From the NCBI RefSeq assembly GCF_004346265.1, contig NZ_SMAP01000001.1, forward strand, positions 186,001 through 250,000: a stretch of 64,000 nt of DNA. The letters run 5' to 3'. The notes below the pieces were generated by a model. The model was not told the DNA's origin and ran no database searches. It saw only the letters and a program-made list of their open reading frames with translations. The translations under genes and the position numbers were made by a program. Origin of the DNA: Thermomonas haemolytica (lineage in GTDB: Bacteria > Pseudomonadota > Gammaproteobacteria > Xanthomonadales > Xanthomonadaceae). Below, one piece after another: positions 1 to 7,700 of the stretch (position 1 is the stretch's first letter; each line of letters opens with the position of its first letter).

Positions 1-1216
1 CGGCGCCGCCGTCGCGCTGGCCACCGGCGTGGTCGGCTGGCACGACGTGGGCACGGTATGGGCCATCGTGTGGGACGCCACCTTCACCTTCGTCGCGCTG
101 ATCGTGATCTCCCTGATCCTGGACGAAGCCGGCTTCTTCGCGTGGGCGGCCCTGCACATCGCGCGCTGGGGCGGCGGCGATCCGCGCCGCCTGTTCCCGC
201 TGACCGTGCTGCTGGGCGCGGCGATCTCCGCCGTCTTCGCGAACGACGGCGCCGCCCTGCTGCTGACGCCGATCGTGCTGGCCATCCTGCTGCGGCTGCG
301 GTTCCCGCCCGCGGGCGCGCTGGCCTTCACCGTCGCCTGCGGCTTCATCGCCGACACCGCCAGCCTGCCGCTGGTGGTGTCGAACCTGGTGAACATCGTG
401 ACCGCCAACTACTTCGGGATCGCGTTCGACCGCTACGCGCTGGTGATGGTGCCGGTCAACCTGGTCTCGGTGGCCGCGACCCTGCTGGTGCTCTGGCTGT
501 GGTTCCACCGCGACCTGCCGGCCGCCTACCGGGTCGAGGACCTGGAATCCCCGCGCAGCGCCATCCGCGATGTCGCCGTGTTCCGCGCCGCCTTCCCGCT
601 GCTGGCGCTGCTGCTGCTGGCGTATTTCGTGACCGGCCCGCGCGGGGTCCCCACCGCCCTGGTCACCGGGGCCGCGGCGCTGTCGCTCATGGCCATCGCC
701 GGCCGCTGGGCCACGGGCGGACGCGGCGCCAGCGTGCAGCTGGTCAAGGTCCTGCGCGGGGCGCCCTGGCAAATCGTGCTGTTCTCCCTCGGCATGTACC
801 TGGTTGTCTATGGCCTGGGCCATGCGTGGCTCACGCGCGAGGCCACCGCCATCCTCGACCGCCTCGCCGGATACGGCCCGCTGGCGGCGACGGTGGGCAC
901 CGGATTTGCCGTGGCCGGCCTGGCCTCGGTGATGAACAACATGCCGGCCACGCTGGTAGGCGCGCTCGCCATCGACGCCGCCCACGTGCCGGCACTCACG
1001 CGGGAGCTGATGGTCTACGCCAACATCATCGGCAACGACCTCGGGCCCAAGTTCACCCCGATCGGCTCGCTCGCCACCCTGCTTTGGCTGCACGTGCTCG
1101 CCGGCAAGGGCCAACGGATCACCTGGGGCCAGTACATGAAGGTCGGCCTGGCGCTGACTCCCCCCGTCCTGCTCGCGACCCTGCTCGCGCTCTGGCTCTG
1201 GCTGCAGGTGGTGTAA
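1..1216 (+). CDS. arsB: ArsB-type arsenite efflux transporter (3' part)
   Basis: C-terminal ~400 residues of an inner-membrane ArsB-family transporter, which exports arsenite/antimonite. The frame is open from base 2, so the true start lies to the left of the window. Visible features are many hydrophobic helices, an early segment with WDATFTFVALIVISLILDEA characteristic of ArsB, and the NDGAALLLTPIV and MNNMPATL segments typical of the family's two half-barrels. The stop is TAA at 1214-1216. No other ars gene (arsC, arsR) is visible, so operon context is unknown. The gene converges on the reverse transcriptase gene. Base composition is high-GC like the rest of the chromosome, unlike that next gene. 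Confidence 0.9.
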   Translation, partial: GAAVALATGVVGWHDVGTVWAIVWDATFTFVALIVISLILDEAGFFAWAALHIARWGGGDPRRLFPLTVLLGAAISAVFANDGAALLLTPIVLAILLRLRFPPAGALAFTVACGFIADTASLPLVVSNLVNIVTANYFGIAFDRYALVMVPVNLVSVAATLLVLWLWFHRDLPAAYRVEDLESPRSAIRDVAVFRAAFPLLALLLLAYFVTGPRGVPTALVTGAAALSLMAIAGRWATGGRGASVQLVKVLRGAPWQIVLFSLGMYLVVYGLGHAWLTREATAILDRLAGYGPLAATVGTGFAVAGLASVMNNMPATLVGALAIDAAHVPALTRELMVYANIIGNDLGPKFTPIGSLATLLWLHVLAGKGQRITWGQYMKVGLALTPPVLLATLLALWLWLQVV

Positions 1217-1547
1217 GCCCGGATCGCACCGGGGCGAGGGGCAACGCCCTGAGCCAAGCAAGGGTGGTCTTCAAGACTGCGACTCTGAGGCGATCATGCC
1301 TGTGGACGGCACGACGGCAGACCGAACGAGTGTTGGGCGCAAACCGCGTGGGCCGCGCAAGTGGCTAGATCCCGAAGGGTGACGGAGGCGATGGTGCCGC
1401 CTCAATCAAACAAACACACCGGGAGTCGGTGGCAGGCAATGACGCAACGTGCAGGCCCGGTCAGCGGGAGGCTCTTCTTCGTTCACTTGACCGGAGGCGG
1501 CGAAATGGTGACCCCGTTTTTCGTTTTTCCACACCTTTCCTCCTCGC
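1217..1547. other. 331-bp gap between arsB and the RT-nitrilase gene
   Basis: No convincing gene. The left two thirds look like host chromosome; toward the right the sequence becomes T-rich around 1516-1540 as it approaches the foreign gene. A small inverted repeat GAGGCG (1385-1390) / CGCCTC (1398-1403) is present. No tRNA, no clear terminator and no transposase remnant is seen. It is the 3' flank of the reverse transcriptase gene and the only sizeable non-coding DNA next to it, so it is the first place to look for a linked non-coding RNA or an integration boundary. Confidence 0.5.
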
Positions 1548-4500
1548 TTAAGCGGGTGATCTTCGTCTGCGCGGCGACACATTAAACCCCTCAGGAACCG
1601 GCTTGAATGGATCATTATCGCGAGGCCATTTTTTTGCGCGAGACTGAAAGCTACGGAGCGAGTTCACATCGATATCAACAACAACGACATAGTCGTCGCC
1701 ACCGCCGCGCACGCGACACAAATCCCGACGATATGCATCTTTCATCGGCGCTCGCACGCGACTGTCTCCATACGACCTATTATTCACAAGCGCAACGTAT
1801 GCATGCACATCCAGCGCAGCGGACTCGACTAAGGCCCCAAATGTTTCGAGGTCCCGATTCCAAGAAAGCACAAACAAAGAATCGACTTCCCCTTGAAAAC
1901 GTTGTCGATAGGAGATGCTCTGCAGTTCTGAACAGACCAGTACGCCAAAAGAGAAGCCCTTGTGATCATAGACTGGCTTCTCAGGAGGCTGCTCGTCCCA
2001 CTCCTGTCCGTATTTGACGTAAAGCTCCTCTTCTTCGGAAGGAGCCGGCAAGCACTTCCGCTGACGAATCTCCACCGTGGACGGATAGCCCAGACGATCG
2101 TCAGAAAGCATTAGAAGCGCCTCACTATAGATGCGACCACCCGAGACTCGCGCGTAGTCAAGACCAGCTATAAGGCTAATCCCTGCATCTCTTAAGCGCC
2201 CACTAATACTTGAAATCCAACGTTCTGGAAGTGACACCTCTGGCAACAAGACATGGGTTGGACGGGGGACCAACTTAAGACACTGATTGATGAGTCGCAC
2301 CAGTCTCCGGTATCGCGCCGGACTAAGGTCGCTTACCCCTCCGGCGCAGGAAGACCACGATGCATTCGTGGTTAGAAGGCTGGTAATGCCTAGCCGCACT
2401 GGCGACTTACTTGGCTTGCCTACAGTCCATACTCTTGACTTCGAATCCACTTGCTCAGCGCTGTTCCCCGTCAAACTCTCGAGCTCAACTGCGTCGTCGA
2501 TAAGCTTGGGCTTCACCCACACGCCCCGCACTGCGCGGACATATTTCGCCCATAGCGTCGCGCCGGATTCTTCTCCGCTCCCAAAAATACACTGGGGCAC
2601 AAAGAGAGCAATCTCTTGAGCGGAGTAAGGTCGAGTGGCAAAGACATATGGATATAACGACTCTTGGGTGCCAGTTTCATCCTGACGAAGACGAAGCCTG
2701 CCTCCACTCTTAGAGACAATAAGAAAATTGGTCAGGTCGGCAACGCCGTCATAACAGCTAACAATGCCGATCTCCGCCTCTTCGACCTTCCGAACTTCTT
2801 CCGAATAGCGTCGAACGTGATCCTTGTATGCAACCTTAGCCCAATCGTGTTCCCTTAGGTCACGAACTATCGAGAAGAGCTGCGAAACATCCAACGAAAG
2901 CCCGATTTCCTCAAAAAGAGCACGCGCTGATCTACTAAGACGAACGGGCGCCTTATCCTTCCACCTGTACGACCTTAGAACCGCTTCTTCTGCTGCCTCG
3001 GCAATACCACGTACAACCGATTTCCACGCTTCAGGTCTCGCGGCTTCAGACCGGTAGCCGTTCACCTTTAAGTATCTAATCTCGCCCTTCTCCGCTGCCT
3101 CCATTAATCGACCAATGGAATCGAACGACGTTCTCACTAATGCAAGCGCGTCGTCCCAATCCTCTAGCGCGACGGCCAGCGATATAAGTCGAGGAAGATA
3201 GTCTGCATGATCCAAGAACCTATCACTTCGCAGAATGTGATTCCGTGCAAACTGATAGAACTTCGAGCGCTCCTCACGCCAGTCCTCTGGCCTCAAGTCG
3301 TGCGCGACCGTTTCAGCATTCCGCAACTGTAAAGACCACCCCAAGCGACGAACTGAAAGGCCATCAGCTCGCCTTAGCGTATCCGCCTCATCCCCAACGG
3401 CTCCTGCGGCGGACAACACCTGAGCAGCTGTTGATTCTTCGAGCATGGAGAGATCTGGCATTAGCCTGCGCTCGCTCGAAACGCTGCGTATTTCCTTCTC
3501 AATGCTTTCCAATAGATCCAAGCCACCTTGGCCGCACAAAAAAAACACTTTGCGCTTCCCGTCTTGGAATGCCAAGCGCGAGCCAGCTTGGTAATCCTCG
3601 CCAAGCACAACATCCCAACCTTCATCGCCCGATTTCTTGATCAGGCCCTCTGACCGCTTCACCAAGAGATCCATTAGTCCAGCGGAATTGATATCACCCG
3701 GGTCCTTTAGCACCAACAGAACATCATCCACATACCGACCGTAATACACGGGAGACAGCTGTCGCTCAACAAAATCATCCCACTTTGCCAACAGACAGTT
3801 GGCGATTAGGCGAGTTGCCGACAACCCAATTGGCAACCCTCCGACCAATTGCGAACCATCCTCTGCTTTCGCGTATACCCCCAACTCTTGAGTCGCCTGA
3901 ACTGACCACTGAGACAAGAAACCCGAAAAATCGCGCGTGAATGCAGTCTCAAATTCGTTCAAATCCACACCGATAGCTTTCTGGAAGCCATCGAGCGCGA
4001 GAAAGCTCGGATCGATCGTGTGGTAGTAGTTCTTGAAATCCAAAGAAACCGCGATTAGCGCTTCACCTTTCTGCAACCCATTCTTAAGTGCATTGAGGCC
4101 GTTGTCTCTCCAGCTCTTGTAGGGCGAAAAATAAGGTTGGAACGAACCAAGCGCCCCTAGGTGATACTCCCCCACTTCACCACCAAGAGACCTTGCCTTC
4201 CCATACCTTCTCAGTCGGGAACCATAAGCGCTAGGCCTAAGCCGCTCGTCAAAGAGATGACCAACTAGGTTGATCCACAGCGCCGACAAGACGTGAAGCT
4301 CAACAGAAAAAACGCCGACAAGGCGGAATTCTGGCGTCAGCTCCTCAGAATCCAATAGGTATCGGAAGGCGCGGTTTGGATCAGAAAAATATGCATGACT
4401 TTCTCTCCATCCATCTCGTCGCTTCCGCGCTAGCTTTTTAGGAACTAATCGATGACCGCCAAAATTTCGCGCCAAGGCATCCGAAAGCCTACCGCTTTGC

Positions 4501-4676
4501 AACTCACCCAGGAGATCCCGTAGGTTTTTCGAAAGCGCTTTCTCATAAGAAACAAATTCCTGAGATACGTGCAACGATCGATCGAAATAGGAATCCGCCT
4601 TAGCCTTTCGATAGGCGTAGACAAGATCTCTCATTTCGAGTTCTTGCCAAGACTTAATCCGACGCACTTCTTCCAT
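1548..4676 (-). CDS. Defence-associated reverse transcriptase fused to nitrilase domain (DRT1/UG1 type)
   Basis: 1042-residue protein. Residues ~70-400 are a reverse transcriptase: motif A LDFKNYYHT with Asp213, the motif B-like GLPIGLSATRLIAN at 280-293, and catalytic YVDD at 315-318. Residues ~400-755 are a mainly helical middle region I do not recognise. Residues ~760-1010 are a nitrilase/carbon-nitrogen hydrolase fold with the family triad in order: Glu813 (LLPEVS), Lys874 (RQRKCLPAP) and Cys915 (GVLVCSEL), plus ALVNNRSYGDSR near the end. This architecture defines UG1/DRT1 reverse transcriptases, single-gene anti-phage systems; nitrilase substrate and DNA product are unknown to me. ATG at 4676 is chosen because GGGAGGGGG precedes it; an in-frame TTG at 4691 is possible. 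The ORF is visibly AT-richer than both neighbours, indicating horizontal acquisition. It is not a group II intron or retron: no maturase domain or msr/msd-like structure is seen. Confidence 0.9.
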   Translation of the reverse strand: MEEVRRIKSWQELEMRDLVYAYRKAKADSYFDRSLHVSQEFVSYEKALSKNLRDLLGELQSGRLSDALARNFGGHRLVPKKLARKRRDGWRESHAYFSDPNRAFRYLLDSEELTPEFRLVGVFSVELHVLSALWINLVGHLFDERLRPSAYGSRLRRYGKARSLGGEVGEYHLGALGSFQPYFSPYKSWRDNGLNALKNGLQKGEALIAVSLDFKNYYHTIDPSFLALDGFQKAIGVDLNEFETAFTRDFSGFLSQWSVQATQELGVYAKAEDGSQLVGGLPIGLSATRLIANCLLAKWDDFVERQLSPVYYGRYVDDVLLVLKDPGDINSAGLMDLLVKRSEGLIKKSGDEGWDVVLGEDYQAGSRLAFQDGKRKVFFLCGQGGLDLLESIEKEIRSVSSERRLMPDLSMLEESTAAQVLSAAGAVGDEADTLRRADGLSVRRLGWSLQLRNAETVAHDLRPEDWREERSKFYQFARNHILRSDRFLDHADYLPRLISLAVALEDWDDALALVRTSFDSIGRLMEAAEKGEIRYLKVNGYRSEAARPEAWKSVVRGIAEAAEEAVLRSYRWKDKAPVRLSRSARALFEEIGLSLDVSQLFSIVRDLREHDWAKVAYKDHVRRYSEEVRKVEEAEIGIVSCYDGVADLTNFLIVSKSGGRLRLRQDETGTQESLYPYVFATRPYSAQEIALFVPQCIFGSGEESGATLWAKYVRAVRGVWVKPKLIDDAVELESLTGNSAEQVDSKSRVWTVGKPSKSPVRLGITSLLTTNASWSSCAGGVSDLSPARYRRLVRLINQCLKLVPRPTHVLLPEVSLPERWISSISGRLRDAGISLIAGLDYARVSGGRIYSEALLMLSDDRLGYPSTVEIRQRKCLPAPSEEEELYVKYGQEWDEQPPEKPVYDHKGFSFGVLVCSELQSISYRQRFQGEVDSLFVLSWNRDLETFGALVESAALDVHAYVALVNNRSYGDSRVRAPMKDAYRRDLCRVRGGGDDYVVVVDIDVNSLRSFQSRAKKWPRDNDPFKPVPEGFNVSPRRRRSPA

Positions 4677-4693
4677 ACCCCCTCCCGTCAACT

Positions 4694-4719
4694 AGAAAGA
4701 AAACCCGCCAATAGGCGGG
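4694..4719 (-). terminator. Rho-independent terminator of the mutase gene
   Basis: On the minus strand, CCCGCC-TATT-GGCGGG is followed by TTTTCTTTCT. It lies 24 bp past the mutase stop codon and its U-tract ends only 17 bp before the reverse transcriptase ATG, so the RT gene sits directly behind a terminator. Confidence 0.85.
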
Positions 4720-4742
4720 CTCTTCTATTCGTGCGCGGAGCA

Positions 4743-7700
4743 TCACATATTCCGCCTGTACTCCCCACCCACCTCATACAACGCATGGCTGATCTGCCCC
4801 AGCGAATGCGTCTTCACCGCCTCCATCAGCGATTCAAACACATTCCGCCGCTCCCGGGCGGTCGCCTGCAATGACTTGAGCCCCTCGGTCGCATAGCCGT
4901 TGCGGTTGCCCTGGTACCCCGCCACGTTCGCGATCTGCTGCGCCTTCTCTTCTTCCGTGGAGCGGATCAGCTCGATCTCGGTGACGATGTCGCCGCCGTG
5001 TTCCTTGGGCAGGAAGGTGTTGACGCCCACCAGCGGCAGGCTGCCGTCGTGCTTCTTGTGTTCGTAGTACAGGCTTTCTTCCTGGATCTTGCCGCGCTGG
5101 TACATGGTGTCCATGGCGCCCAGCACACCGCCGCGCTCGCTGATGGCCTCGAACTCCTTGTAGACGGCCTCTTCCACGAGGTCGGTGAGCTTGTCCACGA
5201 TGAAGCTGCCCTGCCACGGGTTCTCGCAGAAGTTCAGCCCCAGCTCCTTGTTGATGATCATCTGGATGGCCACGGCGCGGCGCACGGACTCTTCCGTGGG
5301 CGTGGTGATGGCTTCGTCGTAGGCGTTGGTGTGCAGGCTGTTGCAGTTGTCGAACAGCGCGTACAGCGCCTGCAGCGTGGTGCGGATGTCGTTGAACTGG
5401 ATCTCCTGCGCGTGCAATGAGCGCCCGCTGGTCTGGATGTGGTACTTCATCATCTGGCTGCGCGGGCTGGCGCCGTAGCGCTCGCGCATGGCGCGGGCCC
5501 AGATGCGGCGGGCCACGCGGCCGATGACGGTGTACTCCGGGTCCATGCCATTGCTGAAGAAGAAGCTCAGGTTGGGCGCGAAGTCGTCGATCTTCATCCC
5601 ACGCGCCAGGTAGTACTCCACGATGGTGAAGCCATTGGACAACGTGAAGGCGAGCTGGCTGATCGGGTTCGCCCCGGCCTCGGCGATGTGGTAGCCGGAG
5701 ATGGACACCGAGTAGAAATTGCGGACGGCGTGGTCCACGAAGTACTGCTGGATGTCGCCCATCATGCGCAGGGCGAACTCGGTGCTGAAGATGCAGGTGT
5801 TCTGCGCCTGGTCTTCTTTGAGGATGTCGGCCTGCACGGTGCCGCGCACGGTGCGCAACGTCTCGGCCTTGATCTTGGCGTACGTCTCGGCATCCACCAG
5901 CTGGTCGCCGGTGACGCCGAGCAGGGCCAGCCCCAGGCCGTCGTTGCCTTCCGGCAGCGGGCCTTCGTAGCGCGGGCGCGGCTTGTTCTCGAACAGGGCG
6001 TCGATCTTCTTCTGCGCCTCGGCCCAGCGCGCCGGATCGGCCTTCAGGTATTTCTCCACCTGCTGGTCGATGGCGGTGTTCATGAACATCGCCAGGATGA
6101 TCGGCGCCGGGCCGTTGATGGTCATCGACACGCTGGTGGTGGGCGCGCACAGGTCGAAGCCGGAGTACAGCTTCTTCATGTCGTCCAGCGTGGGCACGTT
6201 GACGCCGGAGTTGCCGATCTTGCCGTAGATGTCCGGGCGCGGCGCCGGGTCTTCGCCGTACAGGGTCACGCTGTCGAAAGCGGTGGACAGGCGCGCGGCC
6301 GGCTGGCCCAGGCTGAGGTAGTGGAAGCGGCGGTTGGTGCGCTCCGGCGTGCCCTCGCCCGCGAACATGCGGATGGGGTCCTCGCCGGTGCGGCGGTAGG
6401 GGTACACGCCGCCGGTGTAGGGGTAGTAGCCCGGCAGGTTTTCCTTCTGCAGGAAGGTGAGCAGCTCGCCCCAGGCCTTGTAGGTGGGCGCGGCGATCTT
6501 GGGGATCTGCTGGTGGCTGAGCGACTCGCGGTAGTTCTCTACCCGGATGGTCTTGTCGCGCACCTGGTATTCGTTCACCGGCTCGGTGATGGACTTCAGG
6601 CGCGCCGGCCAGTCGCGCAGCAGCTTCAGCGCTTCGGAATCCAGCGACTGGATGGCGTCGTTGTAGCGCTGGCGCAGGGTCTTCAGGCTGCGGTCGTCGC
6701 CCTCGGTGAGGGCTTCGGCCGGGTACAGGTCCAACGCCTTGGGCAGCAACGGATCGCCCAGCTCCTTCAGCGCGTCCCACAGCGACTGCGCGCGGTCGGC
6801 GATCTCCGCCTGCGATTCGATGCGGGCATTGATCTGGCGGCCCTGCTCGGCGATCTCCGCGAGGTAGCGGACGCGGTTGCCGGGGATGAGGACGGTGGCG
6901 CGCGGCTCCTTGAGGGTGGTGTCGATGTGCGGCGTCCACTTGCCCGCATCTAGCGCCAGCTCCTCGCGCAGCAGGCGGCAGAGATTTACGAACATCCAGT
7001 TCAGGCCGGGGTCGTTGAATTGGCTGGCGATCGTCGGATAGACCGGGACGTCCTCGTCCTTCAGGTCGAACTTCACGCGGTTGCGCTTCCACTGCTTGCG
7101 CACGTCGCGCAGGGCGTCCTCGGCCCCGCGCTTGTCGAACTTGTTGAGCACCACCAGTTCGGCGTAGTCCAGCATGTCGATCTTCTCGAGCTGGCTGGGC
7201 GCGCCGAAGTCGGAGGTCATCACGTACATCGGGAAATCGACCAGGTCCACGATTTCCGAATCGCTCTGGCCGATGCCGGCGGTTTCCACGATCACCAGGT
7301 CATAGCCCAGCGATTTCAGGAACGCGATGCAGTCCTTCAGCACCACGTTGGTGGCGGCGTGCTGGCGGCGGGTGGCCATCGAGCGCATGAACACGCGCGG
7401 GCTGCGCAGGCTGTTCATGCGGATGCGGTCGCCCAGCAGCGCGCCGCCGGTGCGGCGGCGGGTGGGATCGACGCTGATCACCGCGATGTGCATGTCGGGG
7501 AACTGCGCCAGGAAGCGGTTCAGCAGCTCGTCGGTGACCGACGACTTGCCGGCGCCGCCGGTGCCGGTGATGCCCACCACCGGGGTCTTGTGGCCGGCCA
7601 GCTGCCAGTGCTTGCGCAGGCGCGCCAGCTCGGCCTCGGGCACCGCCGATTCCTCGATCGCCGAGAGCATGCGGCCGATGTCGATCTCGTCCTCGAACGC

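What the first reader, a model, noticed from the sequence alone, without database searches (positions are those of the whole stretch)
1548..4676. RT-nitrilase fusion: a DRT1/UG1-type anti-phage reverse transcriptase with all active sites intact
Seen: an RT core with YVDD at 315-318 and a C-terminal nitrilase domain whose Glu813, Lys874 and Cys915 are conserved, in one 1042-aa protein. Known: this architecture is UG1, described as the single-gene defence system DRT1; how RT and nitrilase cooperate is, to my knowledge, not settled. Inference: this gene is a functional, recently acquired defence gene. Residues ~400-755 form an unrecognised domain that may be the functional link.
Basis: partly seen in the sequence, partly recalled or inferred. 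Interest (0 to 1): 0.92.

Follow-up and report, generated by a model that had tools for sequence, protein, structure and literature searches.

The report
UG5 reverse transcriptase-nitrilase phage-defence gene

Summary
In detail: window 1548-4676 (-) encodes an intact 1042-aa protein; YVDD and E813, K874, E881, C915 are identical in 73 of 73 relatives. The label does not: it matches PADLOC RT_UG5-nitrilase full length (934 bits) and DRT1/UG1 only at 79 and 33 bits. UG5 RT-nitrilase plus a one-TM partner already stops phages (Rousset 2022), and RT-nitrilase cooperation is largely explained for DRT1 (Neville 2026: template-free DNA primed on Ser402 controls a nitrilase). Residues ~400-755 are a helical-repeat domain, as in AbiA and DRT1. 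Inferred here from sequence: Ser401 is the only invariant Ser/Thr, persists in UG5-small, lies within about five residues of DRT1 Ser402, and is the predicted primer; the C-terminal K-x-x-P tail matches DRT1's essential lid. Of 80 genomic relatives, 17 lie in BREX operons (about a dozen between two PglX halves) and 15 in type I R-M operons. The window copy lacks the TM partner and sits in a variable slot after icmF where congeners carry Septu, NACHT, kinase and other defence-like genes. 'Recently acquired' is only partly supported. Verdict: new member of a known kind, with a sharp testable prediction.

The parts
1548..4676 (-). UG5 RT-nitrilase gene, 1042 aa, ATG start
3528..4676 (-). reverse transcriptase domain (residues 1-383)
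   Evidence: AF2 model; PADLOC RT models; Pfam RVT_1 weak, below cut-off
4038..4040 (-). RT motif A Asp213
   Evidence: invariant 73/73
3723..3734 (-). RT motif YVDD (315-318)
   Evidence: both Asp invariant 73/73
3474..3476 (-). Ser401, predicted DNA-priming residue (motif S-E-x-R)
   Evidence: only Ser/Thr invariant in 73 sequences; kept in UG5-small L093 and in L092; near DRT1 Ser402. Prediction, not shown
2442..3527 (-). helical-repeat domain (residues 384-745), with a flexible loop at about 405-435
   Evidence: nearly all-helical AF2 models; AbiA 8oz7 match; generic helical-repeat hits
1551..2441 (-). nitrilase/amidase domain (residues 746-1042)
2238..2240 (-). nitrilase Glu813
   Evidence: invariant 73/73
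2055..2057 (-). nitrilase Lys874
   Evidence: invariant 73/73
2034..2036 (-). nitrilase Glu881, second conserved Glu
   Evidence: invariant 73/73
1932..1934 (-). nitrilase nucleophile Cys915
   Evidence: invariant 73/73; aligned to DRT1 ICYDATD (C1116)
1584..1604 (-). C-terminal tail KPVPEGF (1025-1031), counterpart of the DRT1 active-site lid
   Evidence: K1025 and P1028 invariant 73/73; aligned to DRT1 tail K-T-x-P-A-G
4700..4723 (-). terminator-like hairpin between icmF and the RT gene
   Evidence: z -2.3; L010 has a hairpin there too

Best explanation
A stand-alone UG5 RT-nitrilase (UG5-large) anti-phage gene that works like DRT1. Step 1 (inferred; shown for DRT1 and for proteins called DRT5S and DRT5L): the RT makes DNA without a template, primed on the protein itself; here I predict the primer is Ser401. 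Step 2 (inferred): the DNA adduct drives oligomer assembly, and the flexible 405-435 loop and the helical-repeat domain carry or contact the DNA. Step 3 (inferred): the C-terminal KPVPEGF tail lies over a neighbour's nitrilase site and holds it dormant. Step 4 (inferred): phage infection releases the nitrilase (C915, K874, E813, E881), which destroys or makes a small molecule and stops the infected cell. Shown here: family identity, intact active sites, domain order, lack of room for an upstream ncRNA, and a defence-type genomic context.
For: UG5-nitrilase HMM 934 bits full length. Both active sites invariant in 73 relatives. AF2 pTM 0.92 with RT, helical repeat and nitrilase; Foldseek to nitrilases and to AbiA. 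A UG5 RT-nitrilase was validated against phages (PMC9122126). DRT1 mechanism, and template-free protein-primed synthesis by DRT5S/L (PMC13275509). Ser401 is the only invariant Ser/Thr, is kept in UG5-small and in L092, and lies 83 residues after the second catalytic Asp against 77 in DRT1. K1025 and P1028 are invariant and align with the DRT1 lid, where K1219A abolishes defence. No Rfam hit; only 66 nt between the icmF stop and the RT start. Of 80 genomic homologues, 17 lie in BREX and 15 in co-directional type I R-M operons. The same slot in congeners holds other defence-like genes.
Against: No experiment on this protein. The paper states that DRT1 Ser402 is not conserved in other class 3 DRTs, and the profile alignment leaves the register uncertain by up to about five residues. 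That DRT5L means UG5-large is my reading; the paper does not say UG5. The validated UG5 system has a TM partner that this locus lacks. Filament formation and tail swapping cannot be tested from a monomer model.
Confidence: 0.6

Rival explanations
1. A true DRT1/UG1 system.
For: Same RT plus nitrilase order; weak DRT1 HMM matches; nitrilase parts are homologous.
Against: 934 bits to UG5 against 79 and 33 to DRT1; true DRT1s show the reverse; 1042 aa against 1225-1294; no Drt1b TM gene next to it, although that gene follows the three annotated DRT1 loci checked.
Confidence: 0.02
2. The nitrilase is not the killer: it makes or removes a small signal, and the effector is a membrane protein (as in UG5 + 1TM and DRT1 + Drt1b), here lost or encoded elsewhere, so the window copy may be incomplete.
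For: The validated UG5 system has a TM partner (PMC9122126), and L092 has a 229-aa ORF overlapping it by 4 nt. Four UG5 homologues have a co-directional small ORF downstream that clusters with a Drt1b/RTasTM-type protein (L029, L036, L084, L091), and L090 one on the opposite strand. DRT1 has Drt1b.
Against: DRT1 expressed in E. coli MG1655 needs both RT and nitrilase activity for protection, and the paper describes it as a single-gene system. Most UG5 loci examined, including L010 at the same site, have no such neighbour.
Confidence: 0.17
3. An RNA-templated DRT that uses a linked ncRNA, like DRT2, DRT9 or DRT10.
For: Many DRTs use ncRNAs (PMC12632851, PMC12596737).
Against: 66-nt upstream gap, largely a terminator-like hairpin; IS110-related remnant downstream; no Rfam hit; the flank conservation inspected downstream of group B was coding. 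DRT5S/L made DNA without added template and with RNase A.
Confidence: 0.06
4. A broken or non-functional passenger, kept by chance in a variable slot.
For: Absent from 24 congeners; sits in a variable slot beside an IS110-related remnant.
Against: Intact ORF; every family-invariant residue kept; a 74%-identical copy persists at the same locus in another species, at about 69% DNA identity, without losing frame or catalytic residues.
Confidence: 0.07

Closest known systems
UG5 RT-nitrilase + 1TM of E. coli P4-like satellites (Rousset et al. 2022, PMC9122126); PADLOC PDLC02995/PDLC03780
   Same: UG5 RT with C-terminal nitrilase, same domain order, both active sites, equivalent of Ser401 and the C-terminal K-x-x-P tail (judged on L092, which matches PDLC02995 over its whole length)
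   Different: About 23% identity to L092; the window copy has no adjacent TM gene and is not in a satellite
DRT1 (UG1), cryo-EM 9YFD (Neville et al. 2026, PMC13275509)
   Same: RT, helical repeat, nitrilase; nitrilase domains clearly homologous (hhalign 99%); C-terminal lid motif; conserved Ser shortly after the RT core
   Different: Different RT clade, about 190 aa shorter, no Drt1b partner; priming and filaments untested
UG5-small with separate nitrilase (L093; PADLOC PDLC03781)
   Same: Homologous RT and helical-repeat part; Ser401 equivalent and adjoining nitrilase gene
   Different: Nitrilase is a separate ORF rather than fused
AbiA (8oz7) and class 1 Abi RTs
   Same: RT followed by a helical-repeat domain
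   Different: No nitrilase; low sequence identity (12%)

Membership tests
UG5-nitrilase (UG5-large) | best full-length match to UG5-nitrilase profile | tested here: met
   934 bits, residues 3-1041
UG5-nitrilase (UG5-large) | YVDD RT active site | tested here: met
   315-318, both Asp invariant 73/73
UG5-nitrilase (UG5-large) | C-terminal nitrilase with Glu-Lys-Cys (and second Glu) intact | tested here: met
   E813, K874, E881, C915 invariant
UG5-nitrilase (UG5-large) | adjacent TM partner of the validated E. coli system | tested here: not met
   no TM gene beside the window copy; also absent beside most UG5 relatives examined, so not a required trait of the RT family
UG5-nitrilase (UG5-large) | anti-phage activity | not testable with these tools
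   needs plaque assay; a relative was active
DRT1 (UG1) | best match to DRT1 profile over full length | tested here: not met
   79 and 33 bits, partial, against 934 to UG5; DRT1 control 2706
DRT1 (UG1) | Drt1b/RTasTM gene alongside | tested here: not met
   present at L237, L238, L240; absent in window
DRT1 (UG1) | priming Ser402 in the loop after the RT core | tested here: inconclusive
   invariant Ser401 within about 5 residues of the aligned position; register uncertain
DRT1 (UG1) | C-terminal lid with essential Lys1219 and Ala1223 | tested here: inconclusive
   Lys kept (K1025, 73/73) and Pro kept; Ala replaced by Glu or Asp in most
[quoted passage not shown]
   biochemistry needed
class 2 DRT (ncRNA-templated) | conserved linked ncRNA | tested here: not met
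   no Rfam match, 66-nt gap upstream, no non-coding conservation found

The most novel reading that the evidence does not exclude
UG5 RT-nitrilases are plug-in effectors: a Ser401-primed, template-free DNA tag on the protein sets and senses the state of a nitrilase killer, and the same module has been inserted repeatedly into methylation-based defences (between the two halves of PglX in BREX, behind type I R-M genes) or, as here, stands alone without a membrane partner in a defence hotspot after icmF.
Probability: 0.3. Interest if true: 0.65.

Novelty: new member of a known kind. Interest (0 to 1): 0.42.

Why it matters
The gene itself is a further member of a validated family. The comparison gives a one-residue test (S401A) of whether UG5 enzymes start DNA on a serine as DRT1 does, and a second (K1025A) of whether the nitrilase is held shut by the same tail. 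It also shows UG5 genes recurrently built into BREX and type I R-M operons, which I did not find described in the papers that could be searched.

Tried and rejected
UG1/DRT1 label: rejected by HMM scores in both directions. Linked ncRNA: Rfam scan empty. Upstream and downstream blastn among homologues found much conservation in group B flanks; on inspection the downstream part is coding, the C-terminal half of PglX, not RNA. Phage and viral copies of this protein: none in 50,697 phage records and none close in IMG/VR; two more distant UG5 copies (L090, L091) and more remote L092/L093 were found. UG5-small or DRT1 in whole-genome samples: none rang, which shows nothing without a positive control. 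Folding 383-752 alone gave only generic helical-repeat hits, none at E <= 0.001. Searching viral predicted structures gave generic RTs and one CN-hydrolase. Papers on RT inside BREX: none found, but the 2022 UG/Abi survey itself did not turn up in the library, so the BREX link may already be known.

Full report
OBSERVATION. The ORF at 1548-4676 (-) reads 1042 aa without a stop. In an alignment of 73 sequences (relatives 29-74% identical to the query) D213, D317, D318, E813, K874, E881 and C915 never vary. AlphaFold2 with 71 sequences gives mean pLDDT 89.2 and pTM 0.92. The gene has 52% GC against 68% in its flanks. By Pfam RVT_1 it is the only RT detected in the genome.

FAMILY. PADLOC's UG5-nitrilase profile matches residues 3-1041 with 934 bits; DRT1 profiles give 79 and 33 bits over fragments. 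A real DRT1 (L241) shows the mirror image, 2706 bits to DRT1 and 130 to UG5. So it is UG5-large, not UG1/DRT1. Pfam sees only a sub-threshold RVT_1, and NCBIfam has no fitting model. The family was validated: Rousset et al. 2022 found a UG5 RT-nitrilase with a one-TM partner in E. coli P4-like satellites that blocks phage, and noted its likeness to DRT1 but different clade (PMC9122126). Locus L092, which matches PADLOC PDLC02995 at 2254 bits, looks like that type: a tyrosine-recombinase-like ORF in front and a 229-aa ORF overlapping the RT-nitrilase by 4 nt behind.

MIDDLE REGION. Residues ~384-745 are nearly all helix. In the full model Foldseek aligns AbiA (RT plus helical repeat) over 723-791 columns; alone, the region gives only weak generic helical-repeat hits. 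DRT1's structure also has an alpha-helical repeat domain besides RT and nitrilase (PMC13275509). It is a recognised type of domain.

MECHANISM. Neville et al. 2026 show that DRT1 makes template-free DNA primed on Ser402, that the adducts drive tetramer and filament assembly, that the swapped C-terminal tail closes the nitrilase site, and that RT and C1116 are both needed; DRT5S and DRT5L also make protein-linked DNA without template. I read DRT5S/L as UG5-small/large because they are called class 3; the paper text does not use 'UG5'. Three sequence tests fit the same logic here. (a) Ser401 is the only Ser or Thr invariant in 73 sequences, in the motif S-E-x-R; its equivalent is also present in L092 (SSAFRFLP, E402 lost) and in UG5-small L093 (GSDFLLLP, E402 and R404 lost). 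It lies 83 residues after the catalytic Asp pair (80-99 in the family) against 77 in DRT1, at the end of a helix before a low-confidence loop (405-435), while DRT1 residues 382-478 with Ser402 were unresolved. Profile alignment of the RT regions puts the two serines within about five residues; the paper says Ser402 is not conserved in other class 3 DRTs, so this is a prediction, about 55% likely in my view. (b) The C-terminal tail KPVPEGF aligns with DRT1 K-T-x-P-A-G; K1025 and P1028 are invariant, and DRT1 K1219A loses defence. (c) There is no room for an upstream ncRNA: 66 nt to the icmF stop with a terminator-like hairpin, an IS110-related remnant downstream, no Rfam match.

DEFENCE CONTEXT. 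Among 80 loci from genomes, 17 UG5 genes lie in BREX operons and 15 in co-directional type I R-M operons; in the 65 with enough flank it is 27. PADLOC confirms PglX, PglZ, BrxC, BrxL, HsdM/S and HsdR for cluster representatives. In about a dozen BREX loci PglX is split and the RT gene lies between its two halves; the downstream half starts at reference residue 592-605 and is usually within a few bases of, or overlapping, the RT gene. The gene tree is at odds with host taxonomy, and the BREX and R-M labels cluster but need 8 and 7 changes (quick method, with a long-branch warning).

THE WINDOW LOCUS. The gene follows icmF (fused B12-dependent acyl-CoA mutase, named from its sequence). In 17 congeners examined the same slot holds mostly unrelated cargo, in 11 a nearest gene with GC3 of 0.6 or less: Septu PtuAB (L215), a DitA homologue (L221), a PDC-S60 metallophosphatase-STAND protein (L225), a NACHT protein (L218), UvrD-like helicases (L214 and its relative in L216), kinases (L219, L223) and an MqsA antitoxin (L224). 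This looks like a defence hotspot and supports both function and horizontal arrival. But L010 (Lysobacter prati) has a homologue at the same place, RT DNA 69% and icmF 86% identical, so 'recent' is not established: either old residence with losses elsewhere, or repeated capture.

VERDICT. Observation confirmed; defence role very likely; family label corrected; the supposed open question is largely answered in DRT1. What is left is a precise prediction (Ser401, K1025) and a genomic pattern (BREX and R-M embedding) worth following. Confidence: family 0.97, defence role 0.88, DRT1-like mechanism 0.6, Ser401 as primer 0.55.

Noticed in passing
L040, L043, L050, L051, L052, L054, L059, L062, L063, L065, L068, L076, L087: In BREX operons PglX is split in two and the UG5 RT-nitrilase gene lies between the halves, often overlapping the second half by 1-4 nt. 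Looks like a composite BREX-RT system; in several (such as L052, L068, L087) another gene also lies between the first half and the RT gene, and for L063 only the downstream half is on the contig.
   Followed up: partly
L011, L015, L017, L023, L026, L029, L030, L034, L036, L048, L049, L055, L072, L075, L089: UG5 RT-nitrilase genes downstream of type I R-M genes on the same strand.
   Followed up: partly
window 1548-4743 and the matching slot in L211-L227: The 3' end of icmF is a variable slot in this genus with different defence-like cargo in many species.
   Followed up: partly
window 1251-1520: Remnant 82-86% identical to sequence found twice in a congener (G008), one copy next to an IS110-family transposase (L211); further partial copies in other contigs and genomes.
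   Followed up: partly
L029, L036, L084, L090, L091: UG5 loci with a neighbouring small ORF that clusters with a Drt1b/RTasTM match (the HMM was run on the L091 protein), the TM partner known from DRT1.
   Followed up: partly
L003 7974-11180; L245 9001-12210: UG5 RT-nitrilase WP_000222103.1, annotated as hypothetical, at 99% or higher identity in 253 of 5426 complete E. coli genomes; in the two copies read it is beside AbiEi/AbiEii, and in L245 near a tRNA-Thr with an ash gene and an integrase remnant.
   Followed up: partly
L093 5956-8848: UG5-small RT followed by a separate nitrilase ORF on a viral-collection contig.
   Followed up: partly
window 29-1213: ArsB-type arsenite/citrate-family transporter on the other side of the RT gene.
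   Followed up: no
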